A model generated the notes under the pieces. The model was given only the letters and a program-made list of their open reading frames with translations. It searched no databases and was not told the DNA's origin. A program made the position numbers and the translations under genes. From the NCBI GenBank assembly GCA_026129465.1, contig JAHCIA010000001.1:3734001-3798000 (forward strand): 64,000 nt of DNA, written 5' to 3'. Below, one piece after another: positions 784 through 59,200 of the stretch (positions are counted from its first letter, which is position 1; each line of letters begins with the position of its first letter). The DNA is from Flavobacteriales bacterium (GTDB lineage: Bacteria > Bacteroidota > Bacteroidia > Flavobacteriales_F > PHOS-HE28).

Positions 784-2538
784 ATGCCGGAACCATCCCG
801 TCCACTACGTGCCGGTCTTCGCGGGGTCATGCTCGCATCGTGCATGGTGCCGGGTGTCATGGTCTCCGGCCAGGACATCGGGGCGATAGACCTGAAGAAG
901 CCGGTCACCATCAGCGGCAACCTGAACTTTTCGCTCGAGACCTACAGTGTGGATGGCATCACGGCACGGCGCCAGCCCTTTACCTGGATGCTCAGCGGCG
1001 CCCCCACGGTAACCGTGTTGGGCGTGGCCATGCCTTTCCAACTGCTGTTGGGCAATTTCGAGAACCGCTTCTACCAGCCCTTCAACCAGTATGGTGTAAG
1101 CCCGCGCTACAAGTGGCTCACGCTGCATGCGGGCTACCGGAACGTGAACTTCTCGCAGTACACGTTGGCCGGATATCGCATGCTGGGAGGCGGTTTGGAG
1201 ATCAATACGGCCTACAAGCCTGATGGGCCGCGCTCGGGCTTGCGCATGGGCTTCATGTACGGACGGCTGAACCGCAGCACGGCGCTGGATTCCGCCCAGT
1301 TCGCCAATCCGCTGGCCTTCCGTCCGATGCCCAGCTACCGGCGCATGGCCTATGCGGCCAAATTGGGCATGGGCCACCACGAGGGTTTCGTGGACCTGAC
1401 CTACCTGCATGGCTGGGATGTGGAGAATTCATTGACCTCGCTGCAGCGCGACAGTGTGCCACCGCAACGCAACACCGCCGTGGGCATAGCCTGGCGCAAG
1501 GACCTCTATCGGAAAGACAAGCGACGCCTGTTCTGGAAGGCGGACCTGGGAGCCAGTGCCTACACGCTGGACGATCGCCAACCGGCGAGGGCCACCGATG
1601 GCGAAGTGGGGCTTGTGCAGGAAGTGCTGGGCGGCTGGCTCGGGGCGAAGATCTCCACCCAGTTCCTCAGTGCCGGCGAGACCAGCCTGAACTACCAGGC
1701 ACCCAAGGGCGGGCTTGCCCTGCTGTACAAGCGGGTGGACCCCGAGTACCGCAGCATGGGCGCCTATTTCTTCCAGAACGATATCGAGCAGTTCACCGTG
1801 GCGCCCAATCTGCGTTTGGACAGTGGCCGGGTGAGCCTCAACGGCAGCTTCGGCCTTCAGCGCGACAACCTCAGCGGCCAGCGGCTGGTGACCAGCGAGC
1901 GGCTCATCGGCAATGTGGGCATGAACTGGAACCCCACGCAGCGCTTCGGCCTCAATGCCAGCTGGAGCAATTTCGGGGTGACACAGAACCCCACGCGCGT
2001 GTCGCCGGAGTCCGAATTGTTCAAGCAGGTGAGCAACAACTGGACGTTGGTGCCCTACCTGAACCTCATCACGGACAAGACGGTGCGCAGCATCCAGCTG
2101 GTGGGGGTGTATCAATCGCTCAACAGTCCGGTGGCCACTATCAACGCGGCACCCGACCAGCACACGCTGGTGGGGGCCCTGGTGTACAGCCACACGTGGA
2201 TCCACCGGGCCATCACCACCACCGCATCGCTCAACTACAACAACACGGTGCTGGCGCAGGGGGATGTGGGTTCGCTGGGTGCGGGATTGGGCATGGGCTT
2301 CCCGGTGCTCAAGCGGAAGCTGCAATTGGGCTTCAACACCATGTACAACCGCAACCATTTCAATGGCACGGAGAACGGCTACACCCTGAGCGGCATGCTG
2401 GACCTGGGCATCGCGGTGCACAAGAAGGGGCGCCTGTCCCTGCAAGGGATCTACCTGCGCAACGAGGCTGCGGACGAAACAGTGTTCCAGACCTTCCATG
2501 AGATCACCTCCCGGATCACATACGGGATCAACTTCTAG
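784..2538 (+). CDS. Predicted outer-membrane beta-barrel protein, first gene of TANFOR unit
   Basis: A 584-residue protein. The ATG at 784 gives a normal signal peptide (hydrophobic stretch around residues 12-28 ending near VSGQ); in-frame non-ATG starts farther upstream would put a charged leader before it. The mature part has the alternating polar/aromatic pattern of long beta-strands with short turns (for example FYQPFNQYG, LTLHAGYRNVNF, TTASLNYNN) and ends in phenylalanine (TYGINF), the usual last residue of outer-membrane barrels. I do not recognise a named transporter family. It ends 3 bp before the TANFOR gene, so the two are almost surely co-transcribed, which suggests it anchors, exports or is partnered with that giant protein. 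That role is inference from position only. Confidence 0.75.
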   Translation: MPEPSRPLRAGLRGVMLASCMVPGVMVSGQDIGAIDLKKPVTISGNLNFSLETYSVDGITARRQPFTWMLSGAPTVTVLGVAMPFQLLLGNFENRFYQPFNQYGVSPRYKWLTLHAGYRNVNFSQYTLAGYRMLGGGLEINTAYKPDGPRSGLRMGFMYGRLNRSTALDSAQFANPLAFRPMPSYRRMAYAAKLGMGHHEGFVDLTYLHGWDVENSLTSLQRDSVPPQRNTAVGIAWRKDLYRKDKRRLFWKADLGASAYTLDDRQPARATDGEVGLVQEVLGGWLGAKISTQFLSAGETSLNYQAPKGGLALLYKRVDPEYRSMGAYFFQNDIEQFTVAPNLRLDSGRVSLNGSFGLQRDNLSGQRLVTSERLIGNVGMNWNPTQRFGLNASWSNFGVTQNPTRVSPESELFKQVSNNWTLVPYLNLITDKTVRSIQLVGVYQSLNSPVATINAAPDQHTLVGALVYSHTWIHRAITTTASLNYNNTVLAQGDVGSLGAGLGMGFPVLKRKLQLGFNTMYNRNHFNGTENGYTLSGMLDLGIAVHKKGRLSLQGIYLRNEAADETVFQTFHEITSRITYGINF

Positions 2539-2541
2539 AAC

Positions 2542-5500
2542 ATGGCGACGAAGCGATGCGAAGAGGTGCCGGGCACCAACGGACCCGGGAGATGTGGCGT
2601 CAGCGGATCCTATGCAGGTCGATCCGCACTGATGCTTCTGCTGGGGTGCTTGTCATTATCACCTCTCGCGATGCGCGCGCAGCAGATCATCGTCTCCCTG
2701 AACCTGCTGCCTCCGTACTCCGCCTATGTGTATGACTATGCCGACCTGAGCGGCCAGGCGATCATCACCCTGACCAATACCACCATGGACCTGAAGGAGG
2801 TGCGCCTCGAGGGCAGCCTGGTGAACGTGTCGGCGGGTGTGTTCATCCGCACCGAGGCAGGGCATCGCGGCGCATCGCCCATTCTGGTGCCACCCGGTGG
2901 TACCGTGGTGCTGGGCACCCAGCCAGGCGTGCTGGATTTCTTCGATCCGCAGTATGTCACCACCAATGCCAGCCAGTCCACCCAGCAGGCCATTGTGCAA
3001 ACCGGCCAGTTGCCCGAGGGGCTGTACCAGCTCTGTGTGGAGGCCTTCGACTACAACGGTCCGCAATTGCTCTCACAGCCCGGTGGAGGATGCTTCACAT
3101 TCGGACTCAGCTATGCCAACCCGCCCATCATCACGCAGCCGGTGCATGGCATGGAGCTGTCGCCCTACCTGGTGAATCCGGTGTTCAGCTGGACCCCGCC
3201 CTTGGGCAATCTGGCCGGAGCGTTGATCGCCTACGACCTCTTGGTGACACCGGTGTTCGAGGGGCAGAACCCCAATGACGCCATCATCGCCGCACGCAAC
3301 TGGCAGATCGGGCAGCCCGTGCTGCGGAAGGAGGGCTGGATGAGCAATGTGTACGTGCGGCAACCGGCCGATCTGCCCTTTGAACAGGGCAAGACCTACG
3401 CCATGCAGGTGACCGCGAAGGACCTGAACAACAATGTGGGCATCAGCAACCAGGGGCGCAGTGAGATCAGCGTGTTCACCATCGGCATGTCCGAAGTGCC
3501 CATCATCCCTTACGTTGGTGGGGGGGGCGGCGGCACGATCATCGATCCGGGCGTATCGCCTGAATTCCTGGCCAATACCCTTTCGGGCAAGCTTCACTAC
3601 TTCTGGCACAACCTCACCAACCATGGTGAAAGCCAGGGTGGTGGCGGTGGCGTCGGTGGTGGCGTGATCGGTGATGTGGGGATCGTGCAGGTACCCGGCA
3701 TGATCATCACGGACCTGGATGGCGGCAACCGGTCGGGATTCGGTGGCTTCACGCAATCCGCGCTGGCCGGGGTCACGGTGCAGCTCATCCAAGCGGTGCA
3801 ATTCCAAAGTGCGCCGGTCATGAGCGTGAATGCGGACAAGCTGCTGCCCGGCAACATATTGGTCTCGGAGACCGACCAGCTGGTGGTGCATGACCAGCCC
3901 ACGCTCACCTTTCCCGTGCTGGCCACCGCCACCACCGATGCGCAGGGCAATTTCCACTTCAATGTGCCGCACGTGGAGGCGATCGACTTCGGCTGGAAGC
4001 AGGGCATGGTGAGTTCCACAGGCGGATGGACCGGTGAGTTCAACCAGACCTACACCGGGACCTTCAGGCGGGTGTTGATGGTGCGCGTGGGCAATCCGGC
4101 GCGCAAGTATTACGCACAACCCATCCAGTTCAATGCCGTGCTGCCCGCCAACGGCGACCTGGGCCTGTTCCATGCGCAGGTGAAGAGCTACGATGTGCGT
4201 GTGGTGGTGGCCGAGAAGCAGGACTTCCAATTGGTCAAGCCCAACATGGAGGTGCTGCTCTTGCGCAAGACCGGGTCGAAGCCTTCCCATGTGCCCAAGG
4301 ATGAGGCATCGCGGGGGGACCTGGCGGCCCATGAGACCATCACCATCAACCTGCTGCAGTATGAGATCCTCGCCAAGGCGGTGACCAACAGCGACGGCCT
4401 GGTGGAGTTCCGCGATCTGGTGCGCTTCGATTGCGCCACGGAGTCGAACAACAACCTGTACTTCACCTGGGCGCGGCCCACGGACGAATTCACTACGCAG
4501 TGGAGCCTGAGCAACCTGCCCCAGCCGGTGAACTACGCCTACCAGAACGATTGGGGCGGTTCCTGCTTCAATGTGGCCAACAACGCGCTGATGACCGTCT
4601 GCACCAAGTGCCTCCTCTCGTTGCGCGATGGCTTCAGCACCCTGAGCCGGAGTCATGCGCGGGCCTTCAAAGGACAGGACGCGTGGCTCTACCACGTGAA
4701 CCGCACCACCATCAAGAAGCCCGCGATCACCGCCACGGTGAAGAACCAGCAGGCGGGCACGCAGGCGAACATGGCCCTGGCCGAACCGCTGGCGCCCTGG
4801 AAGCTCTGGCGCATCAGCAATGCGGGCATGCAGCACCTGATGCAGGGTGGCCCCGCGTGGGGCGCCAGCCTGGAGGGCAATGAGCCCGATGGATTCATCA
4901 TGCTGAAGAACGCCCTGGCCGGTGCGGGCAAGCCGATGGTGCTCGAGGCCTTCGGGCAGACCGGTAACGATGGCCGCATACACGCGCAGAACCTATCGGT
5001 GGAAGGACCCTTCAGCGCGCCCCAGGGCTACTTCTATGTGTTGGATGTGGAGAAGGCGGGATTCGGTCGCCGCATCAAGGTGGTGAACCGCATGAACATC
5101 AGTCCCGGTGGCGGCACGGTGCCCGCAGGGGGGCTGCTGAACTTGGGCGTCTTCGGCAATTTCCTGGGCGGCATGGGCGGGGGTTCCAGTCCGTCGGGTG
5201 GCGCGCCATCCGGTGGCGGCAGTACACCGATACCCTTGAGCATGTACGGCGATGTGGGCATGGTGAGACCCGGCTACCAGTACAGTGCGGGTGAGATCTG
5301 GCTTTCGCCCAAGGGCAAGGTGCGCGTGGTGCTGAACAACGAAGCCGGACAGAGCCTCGGCGCCAGCGCGCATTACTGGGATCCGGCCAGTGGTCAGCAG
5401 GGCGTGATCGTCTCCTCCTCGTTCAACTGGTTCAGCAACAAGCAGGAGATCCTGCTCGATGTGCCCAGTGGCAATGGACGTAAGATCATCATCATTCCCA

Positions 5501-8500
5501 ACAACCTGGACCTGTACGACCGGGACACCATCACGGTGAACGTACCCGCCACGGGCACCCATGTGGTGAATGCCGTGGTGCCCTACAAGCTGCACCGCAT
5601 CCATTTCACCGTCCATGGCGAACCACAGAACCCCATGCCCACCCTGCCGGGCCAGGACCCCGGATTCCAGGGGCCCAAGCTGGCCGGTGCGCGCGTGGAG
5701 TTGATCGGCACCAATGCCATCCTGTACCCCGCCATTGCGCATCCGGCCACCGCCGCCGGCGGTCCGGTACCGGCCTCACCTCCGGGGCAGCCCCTGGTGC
5801 GGTCCACCAACAACGGTGGCATGGTGGATTTCGCGGTGAAGGTTTCGGGCGGCGAGCCGCTCAAATTCCGCATCTACGCACCGGACAACAGCGGCTTCGT
5901 CACCCGCGAGGTGGAGGTGAGTTCCGTGCCCGGGAAACACTGGTACGACAAGCCGTTGGAGTTGCAGCGCGGGCGCACCGTGCAGGGTCATGTGCGCATC
6001 GACAGCGCTGCCGTGGCCGGTGCCAACGTGCGCTATACATATCTGGGCATCACGGCCGAGGCGCAGACCGGCGCGGACGGTTTCTACTCCCTCACCAATG
6101 TGCCGAAGCAGGCCCTCACCTTCATCGCTTCCAAACAGGGCCAGTATGTGGGCATGGAATACGTGGAGGGTGGTGTGAACACCAATGCCTACGGTGCCGC
6201 CATCGCCACTTTCGATGCACAGCAAGTGTTGCAGGGCAACGTGGTGCTGAACCTCGATTTCCAGCTCAGCATCTACGATGGCATGGATTTCAGCCGGATC
6301 CTGGGCTTCCCGTTGGAGGTGACAGCCTTCACGGAACTGCAGGGAGGGCAGGCGCGCATCAACGGTTGGGTCACCGTGCCGGATTCGGCCAACGCCACCT
6401 TCCGCCTGAAGCAGGCCTCGGCCAGCGGCAACGACCTGGGTTGTGTGCGCTTCGAGCAGGTGGTGGTGGAGCCGGATGTGCTGGTGAACCAGGTGAACGT
6501 GCCGCTTGTCCGTCCGGTCGCATTGCCCATGCCGCTCAGCGTGAACGAGGTGGCCATTGGCATGTATCCGAAAGCGGCCGATGATGACTTCGCCTACCAT
6601 GCCACGCTGCGCGACACCCAACAGGGCATCGCCTTGGAACGGCCACCCGGTGGCGATCAGCGGGGCGCCGTGACCGGCGGCGTGCAGGTGGCGGTGGCCT
6701 CCTTCACCGACAACAACTTCACCATGCCATCGGGCCAGGGCATCGGGCTGGCGGCACCCACCGGTGGCATGCGCATACCCGCCTTCGCCAGTGATGCGCA
6801 AGGCTGGTATCCCACGGCACAGGCGCTGCGGGTGGCCAATACCAATGGTCAGCCGCTGGCCTACACCCTGCATGGCTTCCAGGCGAACAGCATCACGGCG
6901 GGTTCCTACTTGTATCCCGACTCGCTCGTGCTGGACACGCGACTGCACACCGACCTGGAGTTCATTCCGGCGCCGGACAACGACCTGGACCTGGCCATCG
7001 GCTCCATCAAGCTGGTGGAAGGCCAACTCGTGCACTTCAGTGGTCCGCGCAACTTCAACATCCCCCTGGGCCAGTTCGATCTGGCGGGCAGTGAACTGAC
7101 CATGGACAACAGCGGCTTCGCCTTCAAGGGCGTGCTCAACGCGGCGGGCATGGAACTGGCCGTGGAGCAGGGCAGGCTGGGCCCCACCAGCTTCTCGCTC
7201 GGTGAGATGGGCGTGCAGAACATGAAGCTCATGGGCACCATACCCGTGGATGCCCTGCGCCCTGCGGAGTTCGGCTATGACGCGGCACGGCCCATACCCG
7301 CCTGGTATGTGGTGGTCACCAGCCGCGACGACCAGGTGACCGGGGCCACCATCAGCGGTGCGCACTTGGACGGCATACCGGCACAGCGCGACATCGCCAT
7401 CACCTCCATCTGGCTCTTCAGCAATGGTGCGCAGGAGGTGGCCTTGCGCAGCGGCATCGCGCCGTATCCGTTCCACGGTGTGAGCGAGTTCCACCTGATG
7501 AGCATGATCATTTCGCCGGACCTGCTCACCCTCTCCGGCGAGTTGAACCTGGGGATCCCCGGCTTCCCCACCTTCACCACGGGTCTGCTCTACGACAAGA
7601 ACCCCGGTGGCATGAGCGACTTCAGCCTGCAACCCTTCGCCATGCCACATGTGGACGTGAACGGGGTGCAGATCGCCTTCAACAAGGGCAGCCTCAAGGG
7701 CAGCCACAGCACGCCGGGCAACAGCAACTGCCTCACTTTCGAGCCGGGCAAGCTCACCATACGGGGAGTGATCGGCGACCAGGACCCCCAAGTGTTCAAG
7801 GACCTGGCGTACACGCTGGAGCGCACCGCACAGCTCACCAAACTCACCGTGGACCGGGAGCCGCAGCAGAGCATGCGCCTGGGCGGCGACAACCCCGGCA
7901 GCCGCATCCTGATGACCGATGTGGAAGGTGAGATGTGGGTGCAGAACGGGGCCAACGGGCCGGCTTGGAACACCTTCTATGTGAAGGGCGACATGCCGGA
8001 GGAGATGGGCTTCGAGACGCAGAATGGCCAGCCGCAGCGCATGCGTTTCGAGGTGCATGGCGATCTGCAGGTGGAGAACCAGCAGGTCAAGCTCAAGGAC
8101 ATCGAAACGCCATTCGGCAACATCAACATGGTGTATGACATGCAGCACCATCGCTTGAGCGGATCGGTGAATGTGGCGCATGGCGTGAGCAATGGGCCGA
8201 GCATGAGTGGTGCCGCGGCCATCGTGATCGATCGCGATGGGTTCTACTTCATGAGCGGGCTCCAGGTGAACCTCAGCGATCCGAAGATCACCGGCATGGC
8301 CTTCATCCTGCTGGGCGACTACGCCACGCGAACGCCCGAGATGGATGCCATGCTGATGCAGTACAGCCTGCACGTGCAGAAGAAGATGGAACGCCAGGTG
8401 CCCGCCTACCTCATACCGTCCATCCAGGAGCTGTTGGTGCAGCAGCCTGCGGCGGGCGTGGCGATCGCACAGGCCATGTATCCCTCCGGCGACCTCCTGC

Positions 8501-9051
8501 CGCCCACCTATCTGGGGCTCTTCGGCAGCGGCCGCTTCAACGGGTTCTACTTCAACGCCGGGGCGCAGATACCCTGGCCCATGATCCCCACCTTCAGCAT
8601 CGATCTCAGTCCGCTGGCCTCCTTGGAGATGGGTTGCGAGGCCGGCATCGATGTGCGCTTCGGGGCCAACTTCGGGTCGGGCATTTACGGCGTGGGCTTC
8701 GACACCTATGTGGACATCTACATGGGTGGCGGTGGAAGCATTGGGGTGCTGTGCGTCCATGGCCGCATCGGACTCTACCTCACCGTGGGCCTCGATGGGG
8801 TGTTCCAAAGCAATGGCAACTACAACATCACGGGTTCGGGCGCGGTGGCCCTCACCGGTGACATGACGGTGGGCGGCGGATTGTGCTCGATACCCTGCGA
8901 TGACGACCTCTGCCTGCACTTCACCATCGGGGGCACCATTGGCCTGGGCATGCAGGCGAACATCAGCAACAGCGGATCGGACTTCGTGTTCACCATGGGC
9001 AACAATGGCACATCGACCACCCAGCATGATCCGCCGCCCACCGAGAATTGA
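2542..9051 (+). CDS. Giant TANFOR domain surface protein
   Basis: A 2169-residue protein. Residues 1-46 form a long signal peptide ending MRA, followed directly by the TANFOR-type module (about 48-315): NLLPPYSAYVYDY, ITLTNTTM, GQLPEGLYQLCVEAFDY and FSWTPP are hallmarks I recall for that Bacteroidota family. Glycine-rich linkers follow (around residues 328, 370 and 880-900). At least one carboxypeptidase-regulatory-like beta-sandwich lies in the middle (GRTVQGHVRIDS...AGANVRYTYLG, DGFYSLTNVP). The last 200 residues are Gly-rich, strand-forming repeats with paired cysteines. No T9SS sorting domain and no terminal aromatic barrel signature are present, so the export route is unclear. It is flanked within 3 bp and 7 bp by a beta-barrel gene and an FN3 gene. 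The function is not known; an extended adhesin or scaffold is plausible. Confidence 0.82.
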   Translation: MATKRCEEVPGTNGPGRCGVSGSYAGRSALMLLLGCLSLSPLAMRAQQIIVSLNLLPPYSAYVYDYADLSGQAIITLTNTTMDLKEVRLEGSLVNVSAGVFIRTEAGHRGASPILVPPGGTVVLGTQPGVLDFFDPQYVTTNASQSTQQAIVQTGQLPEGLYQLCVEAFDYNGPQLLSQPGGGCFTFGLSYANPPIITQPVHGMELSPYLVNPVFSWTPPLGNLAGALIAYDLLVTPVFEGQNPNDAIIAARNWQIGQPVLRKEGWMSNVYVRQPADLPFEQGKTYAMQVTAKDLNNNVGISNQGRSEISVFTIGMSEVPIIPYVGGGGGGTIIDPGVSPEFLANTLSGKLHYFWHNLTNHGESQGGGGGVGGGVIGDVGIVQVPGMIITDLDGGNRSGFGGFTQSALAGVTVQLIQAVQFQSAPVMSVNADKLLPGNILVSETDQLVVHDQPTLTFPVLATATTDAQGNFHFNVPHVEAIDFGWKQGMVSSTGGWTGEFNQTYTGTFRRVLMVRVGNPARKYYAQPIQFNAVLPANGDLGLFHAQVKSYDVRVVVAEKQDFQLVKPNMEVLLLRKTGSKPSHVPKDEASRGDLAAHETITINLLQYEILAKAVTNSDGLVEFRDLVRFDCATESNNNLYFTWARPTDEFTTQWSLSNLPQPVNYAYQNDWGGSCFNVANNALMTVCTKCLLSLRDGFSTLSRSHARAFKGQDAWLYHVNRTTIKKPAITATVKNQQAGTQANMALAEPLAPWKLWRISNAGMQHLMQGGPAWGASLEGNEPDGFIMLKNALAGAGKPMVLEAFGQTGNDGRIHAQNLSVEGPFSAPQGYFYVLDVEKAGFGRRIKVVNRMNISPGGGTVPAGGLLNLGVFGNFLGGMGGGSSPSGGAPSGGGSTPIPLSMYGDVGMVRPGYQYSAGEIWLSPKGKVRVVLNNEAGQSLGASAHYWDPASGQQGVIVSSSFNWFSNKQEILLDVPSGNGRKIIIIPNNLDLYDRDTITVNVPATGTHVVNAVVPYKLHRIHFTVHGEPQNPMPTLPGQDPGFQGPKLAGARVELIGTNAILYPAIAHPATAAGGPVPASPPGQPLVRSTNNGGMVDFAVKVSGGEPLKFRIYAPDNSGFVTREVEVSSVPGKHWYDKPLELQRGRTVQGHVRIDSAAVAGANVRYTYLGITAEAQTGADGFYSLTNVPKQALTFIASKQGQYVGMEYVEGGVNTNAYGAAIATFDAQQVLQGNVVLNLDFQLSIYDGMDFSRILGFPLEVTAFTELQGGQARINGWVTVPDSANATFRLKQASASGNDLGCVRFEQVVVEPDVLVNQVNVPLVRPVALPMPLSVNEVAIGMYPKAADDDFAYHATLRDTQQGIALERPPGGDQRGAVTGGVQVAVASFTDNNFTMPSGQGIGLAAPTGGMRIPAFASDAQGWYPTAQALRVANTNGQPLAYTLHGFQANSITAGSYLYPDSLVLDTRLHTDLEFIPAPDNDLDLAIGSIKLVEGQLVHFSGPRNFNIPLGQFDLAGSELTMDNSGFAFKGVLNAAGMELAVEQGRLGPTSFSLGEMGVQNMKLMGTIPVDALRPAEFGYDAARPIPAWYVVVTSRDDQVTGATISGAHLDGIPAQRDIAITSIWLFSNGAQEVALRSGIAPYPFHGVSEFHLMSMIISPDLLTLSGELNLGIPGFPTFTTGLLYDKNPGGMSDFSLQPFAMPHVDVNGVQIAFNKGSLKGSHSTPGNSNCLTFEPGKLTIRGVIGDQDPQVFKDLAYTLERTAQLTKLTVDREPQQSMRLGGDNPGSRILMTDVEGEMWVQNGANGPAWNTFYVKGDMPEEMGFETQNGQPQRMRFEVHGDLQVENQQVKLKDIETPFGNINMVYDMQHHRLSGSVNVAHGVSNGPSMSGAAAIVIDRDGFYFMSGLQVNLSDPKITGMAFILLGDYATRTPEMDAMLMQYSLHVQKKMERQVPAYLIPSIQELLVQQPAAGVAIAQAMYPSGDLLPPTYLGLFGSGRFNGFYFNAGAQIPWPMIPTFSIDLSPLASLEMGCEAGIDVRFGANFGSGIYGVGFDTYVDIYMGGGGSIGVLCVHGRIGLYLTVGLDGVFQSNGNYNITGSGAVALTGDMTVGGGLCSIPCDDDLCLHFTIGGTIGLGMQANISNSGSDFVFTMGNNGTSTTQHDPPPTEN

Positions 9052-9058
9052 CCCCTTG

Positions 9059-11041
9059 ATGCATACCCTCATGCGCTACATCCTCACGATCCTGGTGTCC
9101 GTCCTACTGGCGCCTTTGGCGGCGCAGCGTTCGGATCCCGAACTCGCCCGCGCCGGTGCCAAAGGCATCTTCGTCTTCACCGGTGGCCAGTTGATGCGCG
9201 CTGGCGGTCCCGTCACGGGCATACGCATCGAACGGCGCACCGAAGGGCAGGAGGAGTTCCGCAAGGTGGCCGAATTGAAGCCTGTGAACTCCGCCAAGGA
9301 GATCGCCAAGGGCATGGAGAAAGCCTCCGGCCTGTTGCCTTACCCATCGCGCTCCGGCGCGGCGAAACCCGACAGCCTCTGGCAACGCCTGCAGCGCCAC
9401 GGGTCGCGCGAGCAATTGGGCGCCGGCAGCAGTGACATGGCCGCGTTGCTGGCGGTGGGTGCCGTTTGGTGCGACACCGATGTGAAGCCCGGGACGCTCT
9501 ACCAGTACCGGGTCACGGTGCAGGGTGCCCAGAACCAGTTCCTTTCACGCTTCACCAGTTCCTCCGCCGGCAGCGTGGTGGAACCCCTGGTGCCGCTCTT
9601 CACCAGCTACCAGGAACACCAGCGACGCCTCAACCTCTTCTGGGCCTGCACGGGCACCCATCGGCCGGAGATCCTGGAAGTATCGCGCAGCGTGGACCGC
9701 GACCCGTTCGAGCGCATCGAACCGGAGATCCAAATGGACCGTCGGCAGGGCGACAGCGTATGGTATCGCATCACCGATACCACGGCCCTGCGGCACCGTG
9801 CCTTCCGGTATGTGGTGAAGGGCTGGGACCTGCTGGGCAACCCCATGCCACCCTGCGACACGGTGTACGCCGCTGGCCTGGATGCCACCCAGATGCCCAT
9901 GCCCTATGACCTTTCCGCTGTGGGCGACAGCACGGGGCGCCGCATCGGGATCAGCTGGAAACTGGACAACGCCCCCTTGGTGAAGCATGTGGTGCTGCAG
10001 CGAAGCACCAACAGTGTGGACGGTTTCAGGAACGTGGCCGAGTTGAGCACCGATCGAACCGGTTTCGTTGATGAGGACATACGCCCGGCCACCTCCTATT
10101 TCTATCGCTTCGTGCTGGAGTACAAGGCCACGCACGTGCCCATGCGCGGGGTCAGTTTCGGTGCCGTGGCCTACGATCGTTCGGCGCCGCCACCGGTGGA
10201 GGAATTCGATGCCGAAGTGACCGACCAAGGGGTGAAACTGACCTGGGTGCATCCGCATCCCGACCTGTTGGGATTCCACCTCTACCGCGGTGAGGGCGAT
10301 GGACCGTTGATGCTGGCCGCGCCGAGGTTGCCTGCCGGGTCGGAAGGTGGCTACAGCTACTTGGACACGGCGCGCAGTGTCACAGGTGGGCGCATGTATC
10401 GCTATGCGGTGCAGGCGGTCAGCACCAGCCATGTGGAAGGCGCATGGAGCGACACGGTGGCCGTGTTGCCCACCGCCCATGCACCGGTGCCCGAACCACC
10501 CAAGGGCATCACCGCCCAAGTGGATGTGGATGTGGCCATCGTGCGCTGGGAGGACCAGAGTGGTGAGGCCCTGTGGGAAGCGTACAAGGTGGTACGCACA
10601 CGTCCGCAGGGACGCGTGGACACGCTATGGCGCAGCACCAATTTCCTGGTGGACACACTGGATGCCGATGGGCGCCCCACCACCTACCGGGTGATCTCCA
10701 TCAATGCCTTGGGCCGCTCCAGCCAGCCGGGTCATGCGGTCACGGCAAGGGCCAGGGTGGCGCCGCCGGCCGCACCTGGTGGCGTGGAGGCGCGATCGGT
10801 GGGCGGCAAGGTGACACTGCTTTGGGAGCCGCCGGTGAGTGAGGTCGTCGAGCGGTTCGACATCTATCGATACACACGCGGCAGCGATCCGGTGAAACTC
10901 GGCAGTGTGCCTGCCGGGAAGCCGCTCCAATTCGAGGATTTCAATCCCGTGAAGGGTAAGCTCACCTTCTACTTCGTGCGCAGCGTGGCGGTCACAGGGG
11001 CCGAGAGCGGGCCAAGCAGGGAGGTGGGGGTGCAGCTTTGA
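9059..11041 (+). CDS. Fibronectin type III domain protein, third gene of TANFOR unit
   Basis: A 660-residue secreted protein. The ATG at 9059, 7 bp after the TANFOR stop, gives MHTLMRYILTILVSVLLAPLAAQ, a clean signal peptide; ATG 9071 is an equally good alternative that removes four residues. From about residue 125 onward there are repeated FN3 units, recognised by recurring VxLxWxxP/xLxGFxLYR and YxYRVxAV patterns (LLGFHLYRG, YRYAVQAVS, EAYKVVRTRP, TTYRVISIN, ERFDIYRYTRG). The last unit runs to the C-terminus (VGVQL) and there is no T9SS sorting domain. Position in a tight three-gene unit suggests that it works with the TANFOR protein on the cell surface or in the periplasm. No enzymatic motif is visible. 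Confidence 0.75.
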   Translation: MHTLMRYILTILVSVLLAPLAAQRSDPELARAGAKGIFVFTGGQLMRAGGPVTGIRIERRTEGQEEFRKVAELKPVNSAKEIAKGMEKASGLLPYPSRSGAAKPDSLWQRLQRHGSREQLGAGSSDMAALLAVGAVWCDTDVKPGTLYQYRVTVQGAQNQFLSRFTSSSAGSVVEPLVPLFTSYQEHQRRLNLFWACTGTHRPEILEVSRSVDRDPFERIEPEIQMDRRQGDSVWYRITDTTALRHRAFRYVVKGWDLLGNPMPPCDTVYAAGLDATQMPMPYDLSAVGDSTGRRIGISWKLDNAPLVKHVVLQRSTNSVDGFRNVAELSTDRTGFVDEDIRPATSYFYRFVLEYKATHVPMRGVSFGAVAYDRSAPPPVEEFDAEVTDQGVKLTWVHPHPDLLGFHLYRGEGDGPLMLAAPRLPAGSEGGYSYLDTARSVTGGRMYRYAVQAVSTSHVEGAWSDTVAVLPTAHAPVPEPPKGITAQVDVDVAIVRWEDQSGEALWEAYKVVRTRPQGRVDTLWRSTNFLVDTLDADGRPTTYRVISINALGRSSQPGHAVTARARVAPPAAPGGVEARSVGGKVTLLWEPPVSEVVERFDIYRYTRGSDPVKLGSVPAGKPLQFEDFNPVKGKLTFYFVRSVAVTGAESGPSREVGVQL

Positions 11042-52017: not shown

Positions 52018-55000
52018 ATGTTCCCAATATCGAACTGGCATGGTAAAGGCGACAGGGCCGCTGGTCCGATCGCGCGATGGGCATATGCTGTGATCCTGCA
52101 TATGCTGTTCGCTCCGGCGTCGGAAGCCGCGCCGATCAAGGGACTTCCGGAGGATGTGATCGCCGGGCAAGGTGCCTTCCTGGAGAACAGGGGCCAGTGG
52201 GACGATCCATCGCTGTTCAGAGCAGCCCACGGTGACCTGCATGTTTTCATGGAGCGCGATGCGATCACATTGTCGTGGGTGAGCGCAGGCGGTCCGGACG
52301 GCCATGCGGGATGTCCGAAGCAAGGTGCCATTCCATCGCCGAGCCACGTGAAAGGCCACGCCTGGCGCATGCGGTTCCAGGGTGCATCACCGGATGTGCT
52401 CGTGGCGGGGGAGCGGCCGGGCCAGGCACGATACCATTTCATCAAGGGGCAGGATCCACAGCGCTGGGCCTCGCATGTCAGGTCCTATGAGGCGGTGCGT
52501 TACCAGGGGCTGTGGGACGGTGTGGATATGCTGTTCCACCAGAACGGTACGGGTTTCAAGTACGATGTGCTACTTGCCCGGGCGGACCAAGTGGGCGTGG
52601 TGGGCTTCCTGTATGAGGGACATGACGGGATCTTCCTCGATGCCGAGGGCAGGTTGACCATTGTGACCTCCATGGGTGAATTGATGGAGATGGCGCCTGT
52701 GGCGTGGTATGCCGATGGCCGCAGGGAGGCCGTGCCATGCCGGTTCACATTGGTGGGCGACCAGGTGGGTTTCGCATTCGCACCGGGTGTGGATCCGGCC
52801 CGCCCGGTGGTCATCGATCCGCAGTTGCTCGCATGCACCCTTTCCGGTATGACCCAGTTCTGGACCGGGACGGTCAGGGCCGTTAGCGCCACCCATGACG
52901 CCATGGGCAACCCGATCATGTGCGGATACACGGCATCACTGTTCTTCCCGGTCACCCTTGGTGCCTTCGGGCAGACCTCGAACAATGTCATCGGGGATCC
53001 CGAGTGGGCATACGATATCGTCATCGGCAAGTACTCCGCCGATGGAACGCAGTTGTTGTTCGGCACATACCTGGGCGGTACGGGCACGGACCTTCCCATA
53101 GCCATGCGTGTCGCGCCGGATGGCGAGTTGATCCTTTATGCCAATACTGCATCACACGACTACCCCGTAACGCCGAATGCGTTCGACCCTTCCTTCAACG
53201 GAGTGGGGGACATGGCCATCACACGCTTCACCCAGGATGGGTCCGGGCTGGTCGGCTCCACGTACGTGGGATCCGGAAATGTGAATGGGTACAATTCATT
53301 GGTCTTCGAGTATCAGGACAATCACCAGGGAGATCTCAAGCTTGATGCTCAGGGGCGGATCTGGGTGGTGGGGGCCACGCTCGGTGCTTCGTTCCCCACC
53401 ACGCCGGGGGCCTACCAGCCACCGTTCATGAACTTCCAGAACGGTGTCATCTTCTGCATGTCGCCCGATCTCTCCACCATGGTCCACGGCGCCTACCTGG
53501 GCACATTGAGCGCGGACATGATCCACGATATCGCCTTCAACGCCGCAGGTGAACCCTACGTGTGTGGTGCGACCATGGGAGCATTGCCCACCACCCCCGG
53601 TGCCTACCAGCCCGTGAACCAGGGCGGCGTGGATGGGTTTGTGGTGCATTTCAGCGCCGATCTCTCCACCATTCTCCATGCCACCTACGTGGGTACTCCG
53701 GCCTGGGACGAGGCCAATTTCATCGTGATCGACAATGCTGGTGACGTCTATCTGCATGGTATGTCATCGGGGGTGCAAATGGAGCTTCATCCCGCGGATA
53801 TCCATCACCATGCGGATGGCACCAACTTCTTCATGAAACTCGATGCCAGCCTTTCCACGCGCATCTTCAGTTCCAGGGTGCATCCACCCCTTTCGGATGG
53901 CAACGGCAACATTTTTCCACCCATTCCGGTGGCTTTTGATGTGGACCTCTGTGGGCGGTTGATGAGTACCATCATTTTCGCCAGGCCCGATCTGGAAGTG
54001 ACCCCCGATGCCCTCTGGTCCACGGGTGGTCTGTACGTGTCGGTGTATGCGCCCAACATGGCGGGCTTGGCGCAGGCTACGTACCTGCAAGGCTCCAACC
54101 ATGCCTATGGCGGGCGGGCGCGCTATGATGAGGACGGTGTGCTCTATCTCGCCGCTTGCAATGATGTGATCCCCTTCGGAGTATTTCCCACCACCCCCGG
54201 GGCTTTCGGGCCGGCACTCTTGACCGTTTATGGGGAAGGTGGGATCTACAAGCTGCGCATGGACGAAGTGACCATTCCGCCACAGCCCTATGCATCACCC
54301 ACAGTCGTCTGTGTGAACGACACGGTGCAGTTCGGTCAGCTTGGTGTGGGAGTAATGGCCGTATGGGACTTTGGTGACGGCAGCCCGACGCAGACCTCCG
54401 TGGGGACCTGGCATGTGTATGATGCGCCCGGGGCTTACCAGATCGCCTTCATCACCATGGGCGATGGCATCTGCGACCATGGGGACACCATCTTCCTGGC
54501 CGTACAAGTACATGCCCCGGTCGCGCTATCGGCCGCGTTCGATCTGGCAACCGACTTCTGCGCAGGACTTCAGGTGGATGCCGTGGCGGATGATGTCCCG
54601 GATGTGCTGCACGCGTGGTCCACGGGCGATGGTGCGGAATATGAAGGACCGGTGCTGAGCCATGTGTACCAAGCGGCAGGCGGCTACTGGATCACGCATG
54701 TGGTGATCTCCACGGGAGTGTGCGCCTCCTCGGATACGGCGCAGCAGTGGGTCACGGTGGAACCGGGTGTCTTGGTCGCAGCCGCGTTCGATGTGGAATT
54801 GACCACGGATTGCAGCGGGGTGCTCTTTGTGGCAACGGATGCAAGCACTGGTATGGCACCGGTCCATTCCTGGGACATGGGCGATGGAACGCTGCTGCAA
54901 ACGGCTTCTGTAGAGCACCTCTTCGCGGTACCCGGTTCGTTCACCATCACGCTGTTCGTTACGGACAGCCTGTCATGCAACCTCGCCGATACGGCCCAAT

Positions 55001-56223
55001 ATGTTCTGGCCGTGCCGGATGTGACCGTGCTGGAAGCCGGCTTCACATGGGAGTTGGTGCCGGGCTGCGGCCAGGTCACCGTGATCGCTTCCGATTCCAG
55101 CATCGGGGTGGCGCCTGTGATCCTCTGGACCACCAGCGATGGTGCCAGCTACACCACAACGGACATCACCCATGTCTTCACGGAAGCCGGTGCGCATACG
55201 CTGACCCTGACCGTGAGCGACCCCTTGGGTTGTGCGCCACCTTCGAGCTTGGAACTGCCCGTGCTGGTGGAGCCGGAGGCCGTGCCCCAGGCGGCATTCG
55301 CCGCGCAGCAGGTGGGCAATTGCGCCATGCTCACGGTGGGTATCGTGGATATGAGCACCGCAGCTTCTTGGGCCATCGCCACCTGGCACATGGGCGATGG
55401 CACCACCTATGAACAGGCTCCGGAGTTACACACCTACGCCAATGCGGGTTCTTATGTGATCACCTTGTCGCTGGTGGACCCCTTGTGTGGCACTTCCGCC
55501 CAGACACAAACAACGGTGATCATGGAGGGCGCCATCCATGTGGTGATCGAAGGCGATCCGGTGTTGTGCCCCGGTGCCACCAATGAAATGATGGCCGTGG
55601 CGGAGGAGGGGGCCTTCACCTGGTCCGGCGGTCAGTCTGGCCCTTCCATCTGGGTCGATTCCCCCGGCACCTATACGGTCACGGTGGTCACGCCACTGTG
55701 CCAAGGGAACGCATCACTCACCGTTACAGAGCCGCCCCGGCTGGCTTTGGGCGACACGCTGGATGCCTGCCCTGGCAGGGCGGTACATATGGCCTCCAAC
55801 ATCGCCGGCCAGGAAGCGCTTTGGAGCAACGGGGCCACCGGCCTGTCCACCCATATCCTTACGCCCGGCGACCATTGGCTCACCCTCGTGGATGCATGGG
55901 GATGCCTGCAGTCGGATACCATCCACCTGCGCGTTATCGAGGACGATGGCGCGGTATACGTGCCCAATGCCTTCACGCCCGACGGGGACGGGTTGAACGA
56001 CCATTTCGCGGTATTCGGTGCCACAGGGTTGTTGCGGGAGATCGAGGTCTTCGACCGCTGGGGCCACCCCTTGTGGCACGCCAGGGGGGAGGGGCACCAG
56101 TGGGACGGGACCACCCGCAGTGTGGCGCTGCCGGCCGGTGTGTATGTGTATCGCATCCGGTACGACCATCCGTGCGAGGCCGGTGGACGCGAGCGCTATG
56201 GGCATGTGACCCTGGTGCGGTGA
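52018..56223 (+). CDS. SBBP/PKD repeat surface protein with gliding-motility (T9SS type B) sorting domain, copy 1
   Basis: A 1401-residue secreted protein. A signal segment (about 22-38) is followed by an N-terminal DUF7948-like domain (about 50-270: FLENRGQWDDPSLFRA, FKYDVLLARADQ, VIDPQLLA). Beta-propeller SBBP-type repeats follow (about 280-740), each with an xSTYVGG-like turn (TYLGGTGTD, STYVGSGN, GAYLGTLSAD, ATYVGTPAWDEA). Then come five PKD-like domains (about 760-1160; WDFGDGS, WDMGDGT, WHMGDGT). The C-terminus is the type B sorting domain: YVPNAFTPDGDGLNDHF, FDRWGHPLWH and GRERYGHVTLVR. It is predicted to be carried by the T9SS to the surface as an adhesin-like protein. It lies 60 bp upstream of its paralogue. 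Confidence 0.9.
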   Translation: MFPISNWHGKGDRAAGPIARWAYAVILHMLFAPASEAAPIKGLPEDVIAGQGAFLENRGQWDDPSLFRAAHGDLHVFMERDAITLSWVSAGGPDGHAGCPKQGAIPSPSHVKGHAWRMRFQGASPDVLVAGERPGQARYHFIKGQDPQRWASHVRSYEAVRYQGLWDGVDMLFHQNGTGFKYDVLLARADQVGVVGFLYEGHDGIFLDAEGRLTIVTSMGELMEMAPVAWYADGRREAVPCRFTLVGDQVGFAFAPGVDPARPVVIDPQLLACTLSGMTQFWTGTVRAVSATHDAMGNPIMCGYTASLFFPVTLGAFGQTSNNVIGDPEWAYDIVIGKYSADGTQLLFGTYLGGTGTDLPIAMRVAPDGELILYANTASHDYPVTPNAFDPSFNGVGDMAITRFTQDGSGLVGSTYVGSGNVNGYNSLVFEYQDNHQGDLKLDAQGRIWVVGATLGASFPTTPGAYQPPFMNFQNGVIFCMSPDLSTMVHGAYLGTLSADMIHDIAFNAAGEPYVCGATMGALPTTPGAYQPVNQGGVDGFVVHFSADLSTILHATYVGTPAWDEANFIVIDNAGDVYLHGMSSGVQMELHPADIHHHADGTNFFMKLDASLSTRIFSSRVHPPLSDGNGNIFPPIPVAFDVDLCGRLMSTIIFARPDLEVTPDALWSTGGLYVSVYAPNMAGLAQATYLQGSNHAYGGRARYDEDGVLYLAACNDVIPFGVFPTTPGAFGPALLTVYGEGGIYKLRMDEVTIPPQPYASPTVVCVNDTVQFGQLGVGVMAVWDFGDGSPTQTSVGTWHVYDAPGAYQIAFITMGDGICDHGDTIFLAVQVHAPVALSAAFDLATDFCAGLQVDAVADDVPDVLHAWSTGDGAEYEGPVLSHVYQAAGGYWITHVVISTGVCASSDTAQQWVTVEPGVLVAAAFDVELTTDCSGVLFVATDASTGMAPVHSWDMGDGTLLQTASVEHLFAVPGSFTITLFVTDSLSCNLADTAQYVLAVPDVTVLEAGFTWELVPGCGQVTVIASDSSIGVAPVILWTTSDGASYTTTDITHVFTEAGAHTLTLTVSDPLGCAPPSSLELPVLVEPEAVPQAAFAAQQVGNCAMLTVGIVDMSTAASWAIATWHMGDGTTYEQAPELHTYANAGSYVITLSLVDPLCGTSAQTQTTVIMEGAIHVVIEGDPVLCPGATNEMMAVAEEGAFTWSGGQSGPSIWVDSPGTYTVTVVTPLCQGNASLTVTEPPRLALGDTLDACPGRAVHMASNIAGQEALWSNGATGLSTHILTPGDHWLTLVDAWGCLQSDTIHLRVIEDDGAVYVPNAFTPDGDGLNDHFAVFGATGLLREIEVFDRWGHPLWHARGEGHQWDGTTRSVALPAGVYVYRIRYDHPCEAGGRERYGHVTLVR

Positions 56224-56268
56224 TCGGGCCACGTTCGGCGGGCGCACCGCGTCATGAGGGGGCGTTGT

Positions 56269-56276
56269 TATCTTGC
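56269..56276 (+). promoter_or_regulatory. Probable -7 box of the second SBBP/PKD gene
   Basis: TATCTTGC, 7 bp before the ATG at 56284, similar to TACCTTGC before the FKBP gene. Predicts separate transcription from the upstream paralogue with a very short leader. Confidence 0.4.
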
Positions 56277-56283
56277 ACAACCT

Positions 56284-59200
56284 ATGATCAGGACCATCAC
56301 CCTCACCGCTTCCCTGTCGATCTCCCTGGGTCTTGCCGCCCACGGCCACGACCACAAGAGCGCCGCCCTGCAATTCCACCTGAACAAGGGCCAATGGCCC
56401 CAGCAGGTGCTCTACAAGGCCAGTACCCCCACGGGTGCGGTCTTCGTTGAGCGGGATGCCTTCACCTACCTGGTGATGAGCGGAGGGGACCGGATGACGC
56501 ACGCCCAACAGGACCGTCCTGCCGAGCCCTTGCACATGCACGCCTTCAAGGTGCGCTTCGAGGGCGCTTCGGCGCAGCGCCACAACGGGAGCCATGCCTT
56601 GCCGCACTACGTGAACTACTTCCTGGGCAACGACCCCGCGCAATGGGCGGGTGGGGTGCCTGTTTATGCCCAGGTGGACCTGCACGAGCTCTATCCGGGC
56701 ATCGGCATGCGCATCGATGGGCACGACGGCATGAAGTACGACTGGCTGGTGGCGCCCGGCGCGGACCCCGCGAACATCGTGATGCGCTACGAGGGCCAGA
56801 ATGCCCTGCGCCTGGAGCATGGGGTGATCTTCGTGGAGACCACGGCCGGCCGTGTGGTGGAGCAACGCCCCGTGGCCTGGCAGATGGTGCATGGCGCCAA
56901 GCGGCCGGTGGAATGCCGATACAAGCTGGAGGGCGACCGCGTCCGATTCGACCTGCCCTACGGCCATGACAAGCGCTATCCCCTGGTGATCGACCCTGTG
57001 GTGGTGTTCAGCAGCTACAGCGGCAGTTTCGGTGACAACTTCGGCTTCACCGCCACCTATGACGACAGTGGCCATCTCTACGGGGGGGGCATGGTACGCA
57101 GCTCGGGCTATCCCGTAACGGTGGGCGTGGTGCAGCCCAACTACGCGGGTGGAGAGAATGACATCGCCATATCCAAGTTCACGCCCACCGGCAATGCGCT
57201 GGTTTGGAGCACCTACATCGGTGGATCGGCCAACGAGGTGCCGCACAGCATGGTGGTGAACAGCAACGACGAGCTCTACATCCTGGGCACGACCAACTCC
57301 CTGAATTTCCCCACCACGGCCGGCTGCTGGCAGACCTCCTTCGCCGGGGGCACCAACCCGCCTTTCGCGGTGACCTCCTATGGCTTCAGCTATTCCAATG
57401 GCAGCGACATCGTGGTGGTGCACCTGAACAGCACGGCCACGGCCTTGATAGGCAGCACATACGTGGGTGGCAGCGGCAACGACGGCCTGAACCAGCAGAT
57501 ACCCACCAACCGCAACTACGGTGACCCCTTCCGCGGAGAGATCATCATGGATCCCGAAGAACGGCCGTTGGTGATCTCCAGCACGGTGAGCGCCAACCTA
57601 TTCACCTCGCCCAACGCGGTACAATCCAGCATCGCCGGTGGTGTGGACGCCTACGTCTTCCGGATGGATCCCCAACTGACCACCATGTTGTGGGCCACCT
57701 ATTTCGGCGGCGCGGGAACGGACGCCGGCTTCGGCATCCAGATCTCCAGCACGGGCGAGATCTACATCACCGGCGGCACCACCAGCACCAACCTGCCGGC
57801 AGGCCAGGGGCCGGCGGCCTTCGCAGGTCTGCAGGGCGGCACCGATGGCTTCATCGCCCGCTTCCACCCATCCGGCGCCCCCTTGTTGTCGCGCACCTAC
57901 GTGGGCACCACCGGGTTCGACCAGAGCTACTTCGTGCAGCTCAACAACCAGGATGAGGTCTTCGTGGTGGGGCAGACCACCGGACCCTATCCGATCACGC
58001 CCGGCAAGTACAACAACCCCAACGCCACCCAATTCCTCCACAAGTTCAGCGCGGACCTCTCCACTTCCATTTGGAGCACGCGGATCGGCGGCTTGGGCAG
58101 CGAACACATCTCGCCTTCGGCTTTCCTGGTGAGCAATTGCGACCAGATCTACTTCAGCGGATGGGCCGGCAGCACCAACTCTTTCGGCTCCGCGGGCCTG
58201 AGCAGTTCCACCTTCAACCTGCCGGTGACGCCCGACGCCTTCCAAAGCACCACCAACGGAAGCGACTTCTACCTGATGATGCTGCAGCCCGAGGGGGAGG
58301 CATTGGGCTACGCCACCTTCTTCGGCGGCACCAGCGCCGAACACGTGGACGGCGGCACCAGCCGCTTCGACAAGAATGGCATCGTTTACCAGGCCGTGTG
58401 CGCCGGTTGCGGCCTGCTCTCGTATCCCACCACCCCAGGTGTCTGGAGCAACACCAACAACAGCAACAACTGCAATCTCGGTGTCTTCAAGATCGACTTC
58501 GAGCAGGCGGTGATCGTGGGCATCGACGTGGACGCCAGTGGGCTCACCGCCTGCCTCGGTTCGCCGGTGATATTCACCGCCGTTGGTACCGCCTCCGATT
58601 GGTGGTGGGACCTGGGCGACGGCACCACGGGGCTCACCGGCACACCCATCACCCACACCTACGGTGCACCAGGTGAGTATACCGTGATGCTGATCGGCAC
58701 GGACGAGAACTCCTGCAACTTCGCCGATACGGCCTACGTGTCCGTGACCATCATCGATCCGCCGGAGGTGGAGGCCATGTTCGATTGGGCCGCCACCAGC
58801 GATTGCCAGGGTTCCTCTGCGGAGTTCTTCAACATGGGCACGCCCGGCATGAACTACGGCTGGCTCTTTGGTGACGGATCCACCAGCAGCACCACCAACC
58901 CCTTGCACACCTATCCCGGCCCCGGCACCTATGAAGTGACCTTGACGGTGACCGACCCATTGTGCGGCGCAACGGCCTCCATCACCCAGACCATCGAATT
59001 GGAGGTACCATCCATCGAAATAGAGCTGCCGCCCGTGGCGTCGATCTGCGATGGCGTATCCATCCTGGTCGACGCAGGCCCTGGTTTCGATACATACAAT
59101 TGGAGTACAGGGGCCACAAGCCAGACGATCACCGTGAGCCAGGCCGGCACCTACTGGGTGATCGTGACCGAAGGCATCTGTGTGGGAAGCGACACCGTGG

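What the first reader, a model, noticed from the sequence alone, without database searches (positions are those of the whole stretch)
784..11041. Three-gene unit: beta-barrel, giant TANFOR protein, FN3 protein
Gaps of 3 bp and 7 bp show one operon. The giant protein has a signal peptide but no T9SS sorting domain, while almost all other surface proteins in this window have one. The first gene is a predicted outer-membrane barrel. A dedicated barrel-plus-giant-adhesin system independent of T9SS is a reasonable hypothesis, and I know of no described function for it.
Basis: partly seen in the sequence, partly recalled or inferred. Interest (0 to 1): 0.62.

Follow-up and report, generated by a model that had tools for sequence, protein, structure and literature searches.

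The report
Barrel-docked giant surface-protein cassette
Three neighbouring genes encode an outer-membrane barrel, a giant protein whose first domain is matched to that barrel, and a helper protein that is swapped together with the rest of the giant; this looks like a widespread, so far undescribed, mix-and-match platform by which Bacteroidota export or display large proteins.

Summary
In detail: 784-2538, 2542-9051 and 9059-11041 are three same-strand genes with gaps of 3 and 7 bp. They encode a predicted 24-strand outer-membrane barrel, a 2,169-aa giant with an N-terminal TANFOR domain, and an FN3 protein, none with a T9SS sorting domain. The pairing is phylum-wide: in 296 Bacteroidota genomes the barrel is found in 67, TANFOR in 71, both in 67. 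Barrel-giant order holds in 78 of 80 named loci, usually with the FN3 gene next; in one lineage TANFOR and barrel are fused. The strongest new evidence is modular evolution: the barrel co-varies with TANFOR, the rest of the giant with the FN3 protein, switching sharply where TANFOR ends. Between two Runella species the body-plus-FN3 cassette is replaced beside near-identical barrel-TANFOR DNA. Best reading: barrel and TANFOR form a fixed docking or export unit; body plus FN3 is exchangeable cargo. Flavobacteriaceae-type TANFOR proteins carry toxin-like ends. Independence from T9SS is not shown: every barrel+TANFOR genome tested has SprA. Adhesin function is unproven. TANFOR proteins are known (Jana 2020); the barrel, FN3 partner and cassette logic were not found in the literature searched.

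The parts
784..2538 (+). Gene A: predicted outer-membrane beta-barrel (584 aa) with an N-terminal Sec-type signal; about 24 strands in the model, no POTRA, no known family
   Evidence: ORF; no Pfam/NCBIfam/PHROG hit; AF2 pLDDT 77.4; folds; homologue alignment
2542..9051 (+). Gene B: TANFOR giant (2,169 aa), starts 3 bp after gene A
   Evidence: weak TIGR02542 hit
2680..3489 (+). B residues 47-316: TANFOR region (Ig-like plus FN3-like), the part that co-varies with the barrel
   Evidence: alignment; co-variation
3517..3534 (+). Run of six glycines (B residues 326-331) just after the TANFOR region, inside the interval where co-variation switches partner
   Evidence: sequence printed; switch between windows 287-316 and 317-346
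3535..9048 (+). B residues 332-2169: body, co-varies with gene C; exchangeable between related species
5593..6273 (+). B residues 1018-1244: transthyretin/carboxypeptidase-D-like Ig-type domains
   Evidence: CarboxypepD_reg, weak below cut-off in window but in 28 of 31 relatives; VIA-align Z 10.2-10.5, rmsd 1.7 over 76-80 residues
8062..9033 (+). B residues 1841-2164: C-terminal region of long beta-hairpins, similar in shape to outer-membrane barrels
   Evidence: AF2 model; VIA-align Z about 12 over about 210 residues
9059..11041 (+). Gene C: FN3-repeat protein (660 aa) with signal peptide, starts 7 bp after gene B; cognate partner of the body
   Evidence: co-variation

Best explanation
The three genes are one copy of a phylum-wide modular platform. 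Gene A makes a large outer-membrane barrel. The TANFOR region of the giant (residues about 47-316) is an adaptor that docks on that barrel, most likely from the periplasmic side, since TANFOR sits N-terminal to the barrel in the natural fusions. The remaining ~1,850 residues are a cargo body that the barrel exports and/or holds at the cell surface. The FN3 protein (gene C) is a partner specific to that body. Barrel+TANFOR is the constant unit; body+FN3 is a cassette replaced as a block. In Flavobacteriaceae-type loci a body homologue is a separate gene near the barrel and TANFOR proteins end in toxin-like domains. Shown here: gene order, co-occurrence, fusion, co-variation and cassette swaps. 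Inferred: physical docking, direction of transport, surface location, and what the body does.
For: Co-occurrence in 67 of 67 barrel genomes, 85 of 97 barrels within 15 kb of TANFOR, all on the same strand. Barrel then giant in 78 of 80 named loci, with FN3 in 63 of those. Fourteen distinct TANFOR-barrel fusion genes forming one clade. Barrel-TANFOR distance correlation 0.93 (partial 0.89), body-FN3 0.96 (partial 0.93), TANFOR-body within the same protein about 0 after partialling. Sharp switch at the end of TANFOR. Runella cassette swap: barrel 97%, TANFOR 97%, body unrelated, FN3 25%, flanking DNA about 95% identical. Twenty-six pairs with similar TANFOR but unrelated body: similarity ends 258-336 residues from the TANFOR start, barrel median 67%, FN3 24%, against 57.5% FN3 when the body is kept. 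Predicted large barrel.
Against: Barrel and TANFOR, and body and FN3, are DNA neighbours, so linkage alone gives some co-variation. The 26 swapped pairs share loci and are not 26 independent events; the fusions trace to one event. The barrel model is moderate (pLDDT 77, pTM 0.65) and fold similarity shows no function. No structure of a barrel-TANFOR complex could be made. All genomes with the pair also have T9SS. In two loci of the window's order barrel and giant are divergently transcribed (L025, L026).
Confidence: 0.6

Rival explanations
1. T9SS does the transport. TANFOR giants leave through SprA by a signal other than the known C-terminal domains, and the barrel is only a dedicated shuttle or surface anchor, as SprF-like barrels are for type B substrates.
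For: SprA in all 67 barrel+TANFOR genomes, Fisher P 2.8e-9. Jana et al. proposed TANFOR proteins as T9SS substrates (PMC7073777). SprF/PorP-like barrels are encoded next to type B substrates and needed for their secretion (PMC12618676).
Against: No sorting domain in 31 bodies or 18 FN3 proteins. Gene A hits no PorP/SprF model and models as about 24 strands. In the fusions TANFOR is N-terminal to the barrel, hence expected at the periplasmic side. The SprA association may be phylogenetic: many of the SprA-less genomes listed belong to one family (f18).
Confidence: 0.3
2. The giant stays in the periplasm and works with the barrel in envelope assembly or lipid/polysaccharide transport, somewhat like TamA-TamB or an LptD-like system.
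For: Barrel next to a giant beta-rich protein recalls tamA-tamB. Foldseek lists LptD, ApoB and TamA among weak matches of the body.
Against: Those matches have TM-scores near 0.1 and rmsd above 20 A, so they are not evidence of a shared fold. No AsmA/TamB or POTRA domain was found. Frequent wholesale body replacement and toxin-like C-termini with TANFOR in other genomes fit surface cargo better.
Confidence: 0.12
3. No functional partnership. The genes are simply linked, and neighbouring segments share history because recombination breaks happen to fall inside gene B.
For: TANFOR lies next to gene A and the body next to gene C on the DNA; linkage produces correlated distances.
Against: Co-variation changes as a step at the TANFOR boundary and is flat over the following ~1,800 residues. 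Breaks in swapped pairs cluster at 258-336 residues. Co-occurrence is phylum-wide, includes loci where the genes are several kb apart, and includes natural fusions.
Confidence: 0.07

Closest known systems
TANFOR polymorphic toxins of Bacteroidota (Jana, Salomon and Bosis 2020, PMC7073777)
   Same: N-terminal TANFOR after a Sec signal, large proteins, variable C-terminal part with a matched downstream gene, T9SS-positive genomes, FN3 domains in the neighbourhood.
   Different: The window TANFOR is a weak match below cut-off, no toxin domain or immunity gene was recognised, and a dedicated barrel plus a body-matched FN3 partner are present; the passages read mention neither.
T9SS type B substrates with PorP/SprF-like shuttles (e.g. 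SprB-SprF)
   Same: A giant surface-type protein encoded next to a cognate outer-membrane barrel.
   Different: The matching domain is N-terminal rather than C-terminal, the barrel gene is upstream, the barrel models as about 24 strands, no type B domain is present, and gene A hits no PorP/SprF model.
Two-partner secretion (TpsA/TpsB, type Vb)
   Same: One barrel and one giant with an N-terminal recognition domain, adjacent genes.
   Different: No POTRA or Omp85/ShlB domain in the barrel and no TPS domain in the giant by Pfam; a third, cargo-matched gene exists.
Chaperone-usher pathway (FimD/PapC)
   Same: The best-fitting large barrels by rmsd are usher translocation domains (rmsd 4.0 A over 369 residues).
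   Different: No usher N-terminal, plug or C-terminal domains by Pfam, no PapD-like chaperone gene in the operon; similarity is of barrel size and shape only.

Membership tests
TANFOR (TIGR02542) proteins | Match to TIGR02542 above the curated cut-off (67 bits) | tested here: not met
   23.7 bits, E 3.6e-5; no genome of 296 or 159 had any match above cut-off, so the cut-off excludes the wider family
TANFOR (TIGR02542) proteins | Significant match to the N-terminal TANFOR profile right after a signal peptide in a large protein | tested here: met
TANFOR polymorphic toxins | Recognisable C-terminal toxin domain with a downstream immunity gene | tested here: not met
   No toxin family in the giant; downstream gene is an FN3 protein
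T9SS substrates, type A or B | C-terminal TIGR04183 or TIGR04131 domain | tested here: not met
   positive controls in the same window
T9SS substrates of any kind | Secretion depends on SprA | not testable with these tools
   SprA co-occurs in 67 of 67 genomes, which is compatible but not proof
PorP/SprF-like T9SS shuttles | Match to the PorP/SprF family models | tested here: not met
   Gene A has no hit in Pfam or NCBIfam at E up to 1
Two-partner secretion | POTRA plus Omp85/ShlB barrel and a TPS domain in the partner | tested here: not met
   No such Pfam domain in genes A or B
Chaperone-usher | Usher family sequence and accessory domains | tested here: not met
   No Pfam usher match; barrel shape alone resembles FimD

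The most novel reading that the evidence does not exclude
A dedicated, T9SS-independent outer-membrane export system widespread in Bacteroidota: a 24-strand barrel recognises an N-terminal TANFOR adaptor and passes giant cargo to the surface, with cargo and its FN3 partner exchanged as cassettes, and with toxin-carrying variants used in competition.
Probability: 0.33. Interest if true: 0.88.

Novelty: new variant of a known kind. Interest (0 to 1): 0.7.

Why it matters
How TANFOR toxins and giants cross the outer membrane was left open in 2020, with T9SS proposed only by association. A barrel that is nearly always encoded with TANFOR, is fused to it in one lineage, and co-varies with exactly that domain gives a concrete candidate for the missing outer-membrane partner and makes the question testable by a single gene deletion. 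The body-FN3 cassette exchange adds a second testable pair and a natural mix-and-match display system found in Flavobacteriales, Chitinophagaceae, Sphingobacteriaceae and Spirosomataceae relatives.

Tried and rejected
Known families for gene A: none in Pfam, NCBIfam or PHROGs, no solved relative by profile. Toxin domain in the window giant: none. Lipoprotein anchoring: the window giant's leader contains LLGC, but the leaders of its relatives mostly do not keep it, so a plain Sec signal is assumed. Fold of the body: Foldseek's top names (teneurin, LptD, ApoB) have TM-scores near 0.1 and are not used; only the CPD-like domains (rmsd 1.7) and the barrel-like C-terminal hairpins (Z about 12) are mentioned. 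Single-sequence comparison of the separate Flavobacteriaceae-type body with the window-type body found nothing; profile against profile gave probability 88, E 2.9e-6 over 177 columns, so common origin is probable, not certain. A first filter for swapped pairs was faulty (full-length alignments were counted as lost) and was replaced. Promoter and terminator scans were uninformative. Paper searches for the barrel or the triad found nothing beyond Jana 2020; the library holds open-licence papers only.

Full report
WHAT IS THERE. One search shows three same-strand genes: A (784-2538, barrel, 584 aa from the ATG at 784), B (2542-9051, 2,169 aa) and C (start at 9059, end 11041, 660 aa). The gaps are 3 and 7 bp. 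A has no match in Pfam, NCBIfam or PHROGs. B has a weak but significant TANFOR match at residues 51-179 and a CarboxypepD_reg-like stretch at 1146-1201. C has an FN3 domain above cut-off. B and C lack T9SS sorting domains, while other ORFs of the window have them: type A in three ORFs between 12043 and 16435, type B in two between 52018 and 59712.

THE BARREL. AlphaFold2 with 25 relatives gave pLDDT 77.4 and pTM 0.65. Counting the strands in its secondary-structure line gives about 24; this is my count on a moderate model. Nearest solved folds are porins and other large barrels by Z, and usher translocation domains by fit (FimD, Z 14.7, rmsd 4.0 over 369 residues; the barrel of the Mtr complex, Z 16.8 over 452). 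This is similarity of shape, not of function.

CONSERVATION OF THE UNIT. In the window's own order, barrel relatives were followed in 45 genomes, and the neighbourhoods show A next to B wherever the contig is long enough, usually with C after B; in two loci A and B are divergent. The genome has a second, divergent copy of the whole triad (L022, barrel 34-36% identical). Across 296 Bacteroidota genomes at least 90% complete, barrel (70 bits or more) occurs in 67 and TANFOR in 71, with 67 in common; 70 of 97 barrels lie within 3 kb and 85 within 15 kb of a TANFOR hit, all on the same strand. One of the four TANFOR-only genomes (G275) turned out to have the barrel too (L234). In 80 named loci the order barrel-giant holds in 78 and C is also seen in 63 of those; some are cut by contig ends. 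These 80 are the best matches to the window's barrel, so they are not a random sample. All genomes with a TIGR02542 match in these searches also have the barrel.

FUSIONS. In one group of genomes a single ORF carries signal peptide, TANFOR and then barrel. Fourteen distinct genes were seen (19 entries including 5 duplicates), with the domain order TANFOR first, barrel last. They form one clade in a barrel tree, so this is one fusion event. Because the N-terminus of an outer-membrane barrel normally faces the periplasm (general knowledge), the fusion suggests that TANFOR meets the barrel from that side; export of TANFOR through the barrel is not excluded.

TWO EVOLUTIONARY MODULES. For 48 loci with complete A, B and C, pairwise distances were compared. 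Barrel and TANFOR correlate at 0.93 and body and FN3 at 0.96, while TANFOR and body, which are one polypeptide, correlate at 0.66. Partial correlations are 0.89, 0.93 and -0.01. Permutation of barrel labels never reached the observed barrel-TANFOR value in 999 trials. The result holds without the window's order and in random halves. Along B, windows up to residue 316 follow the barrel and windows from 317-346 on follow the FN3 protein; a run of six glycines lies at 326-331. With 80 loci and without the body, the barrel-TANFOR partial given FN3 is 0.84.

CASSETTE SWAPS. Runella defluvii (L184) and R. limosa (L187) have barrels 97% and TANFOR regions 97% identical (the giants align at 92% over their first 372 residues), then unrelated bodies and FN3 proteins only 25% identical, and again 94.7% identical DNA downstream. 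In all, 26 locus pairs keep TANFOR (at least 55%) but have unrelated bodies; similarity ends 258-336 residues from the TANFOR start, the barrel stays at a median of 67% and FN3 falls to 24%, against 57.5% in pairs that keep the body. These pairs share loci, so they are not independent events.

OTHER ARCHITECTURES. In Flavobacteriaceae-type loci (L098, L099) TANFOR proteins have singleton C-termini and lie some genes away from a barrel, which in L098 has a C-terminal extension of about 250 aa. The gene after the barrel encodes a giant without TANFOR (P0003) that matches residues about 740-2020 of TANFOR giants elsewhere at E down to 1e-129. One C-terminus (L100, 1,726 aa) reads like an HNH nuclease; this is from reading the sequence, not a tool result. 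So the same parts occur joined, split, or fused differently. The window-type body is probably related to this one (probability 88).

BODY. The last 1,169 residues of the window giant model well (pLDDT 80.4) and are almost all beta. Two CPD/transthyretin-like domains are clear (rmsd 1.7 over 76-80 residues); the last ~320 residues form long hairpins shaped like outer-membrane barrels (Z about 12). What the body does is unknown; S-layer, adhesion, or toxin-carrier roles are all open.

T9SS. SprA is present in all 67 barrel+TANFOR genomes and in 161 of the other 229 (Fisher 2.8e-9). This is compatible with T9SS dependence and may also reflect phylogeny, since many of the SprA-less genomes shown belong to one family.

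KNOWN WORK. Jana et al. (PMC7073777) described TANFOR proteins as polymorphic toxins, noted that toxins are sometimes encoded by the next gene, found FN3, SprB and sorting-domain genes enriched nearby, and proposed T9SS export. SprF/PorP-like shuttles for type B substrates are the nearest functional precedent (PMC12618676). No described barrel-TANFOR-FN3 system was found.

CERTAINTY. Shown: gene content, order, co-occurrence, fusion, co-variation, cassette exchange. Supported by prediction: barrel, all-beta body. Inferred: docking, transport, surface display. Not tested: any function of the giant.

Noticed in passing
L107:514-7435 and L227-L232: A distant sister of the barrel (about 800-920 aa, about 260-300 aa before the barrel) sits in a conserved operon with a FecR protein and a CHASE2-adenylate/guanylate cyclase, plus in some loci a ~396-aa protein; this looks like an envelope sensing system and the barrel hits no family model.
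   Followed up: partly
L184:8313-18959 versus L187:8313-21575: Between two Runella species the body+FN3 cassette is replaced between near-identical barrel-TANFOR DNA and near-identical downstream DNA.
   Followed up: yes
L098:16735-19000 and L099:1-4608: In Flavobacteriaceae-type loci a giant without TANFOR follows the barrel and is homologous to the bodies of TANFOR giants in other families.
   Followed up: partly
L098:14197-16653: The barrel of this locus carries a ~250-aa, apparently helical C-terminal extension without any family match.
   Followed up: no
L022:7498-16695 (same genome as the window): A second, divergent barrel-giant-FN3 triad in the window's own genome, so the system is present as paralogues.
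   Followed up: partly
L187:17585-18675, L104:3189-4379: An extra gene or gap of about 1 kb lies between giant and FN3 gene in some Spirosomataceae-type loci; not identified.
   Followed up: no
window 52018-59712: Two adjacent giant proteins with type B T9SS sorting domains (1,401 and 1,153 aa); whether an SprF-like gene lies next to them was not checked.
   Followed up: no
L025:12481-19001 and L026:1124-8882: In two loci of the window's order the barrel and the TANFOR giant are divergently transcribed instead of in one operon.
   Followed up: no
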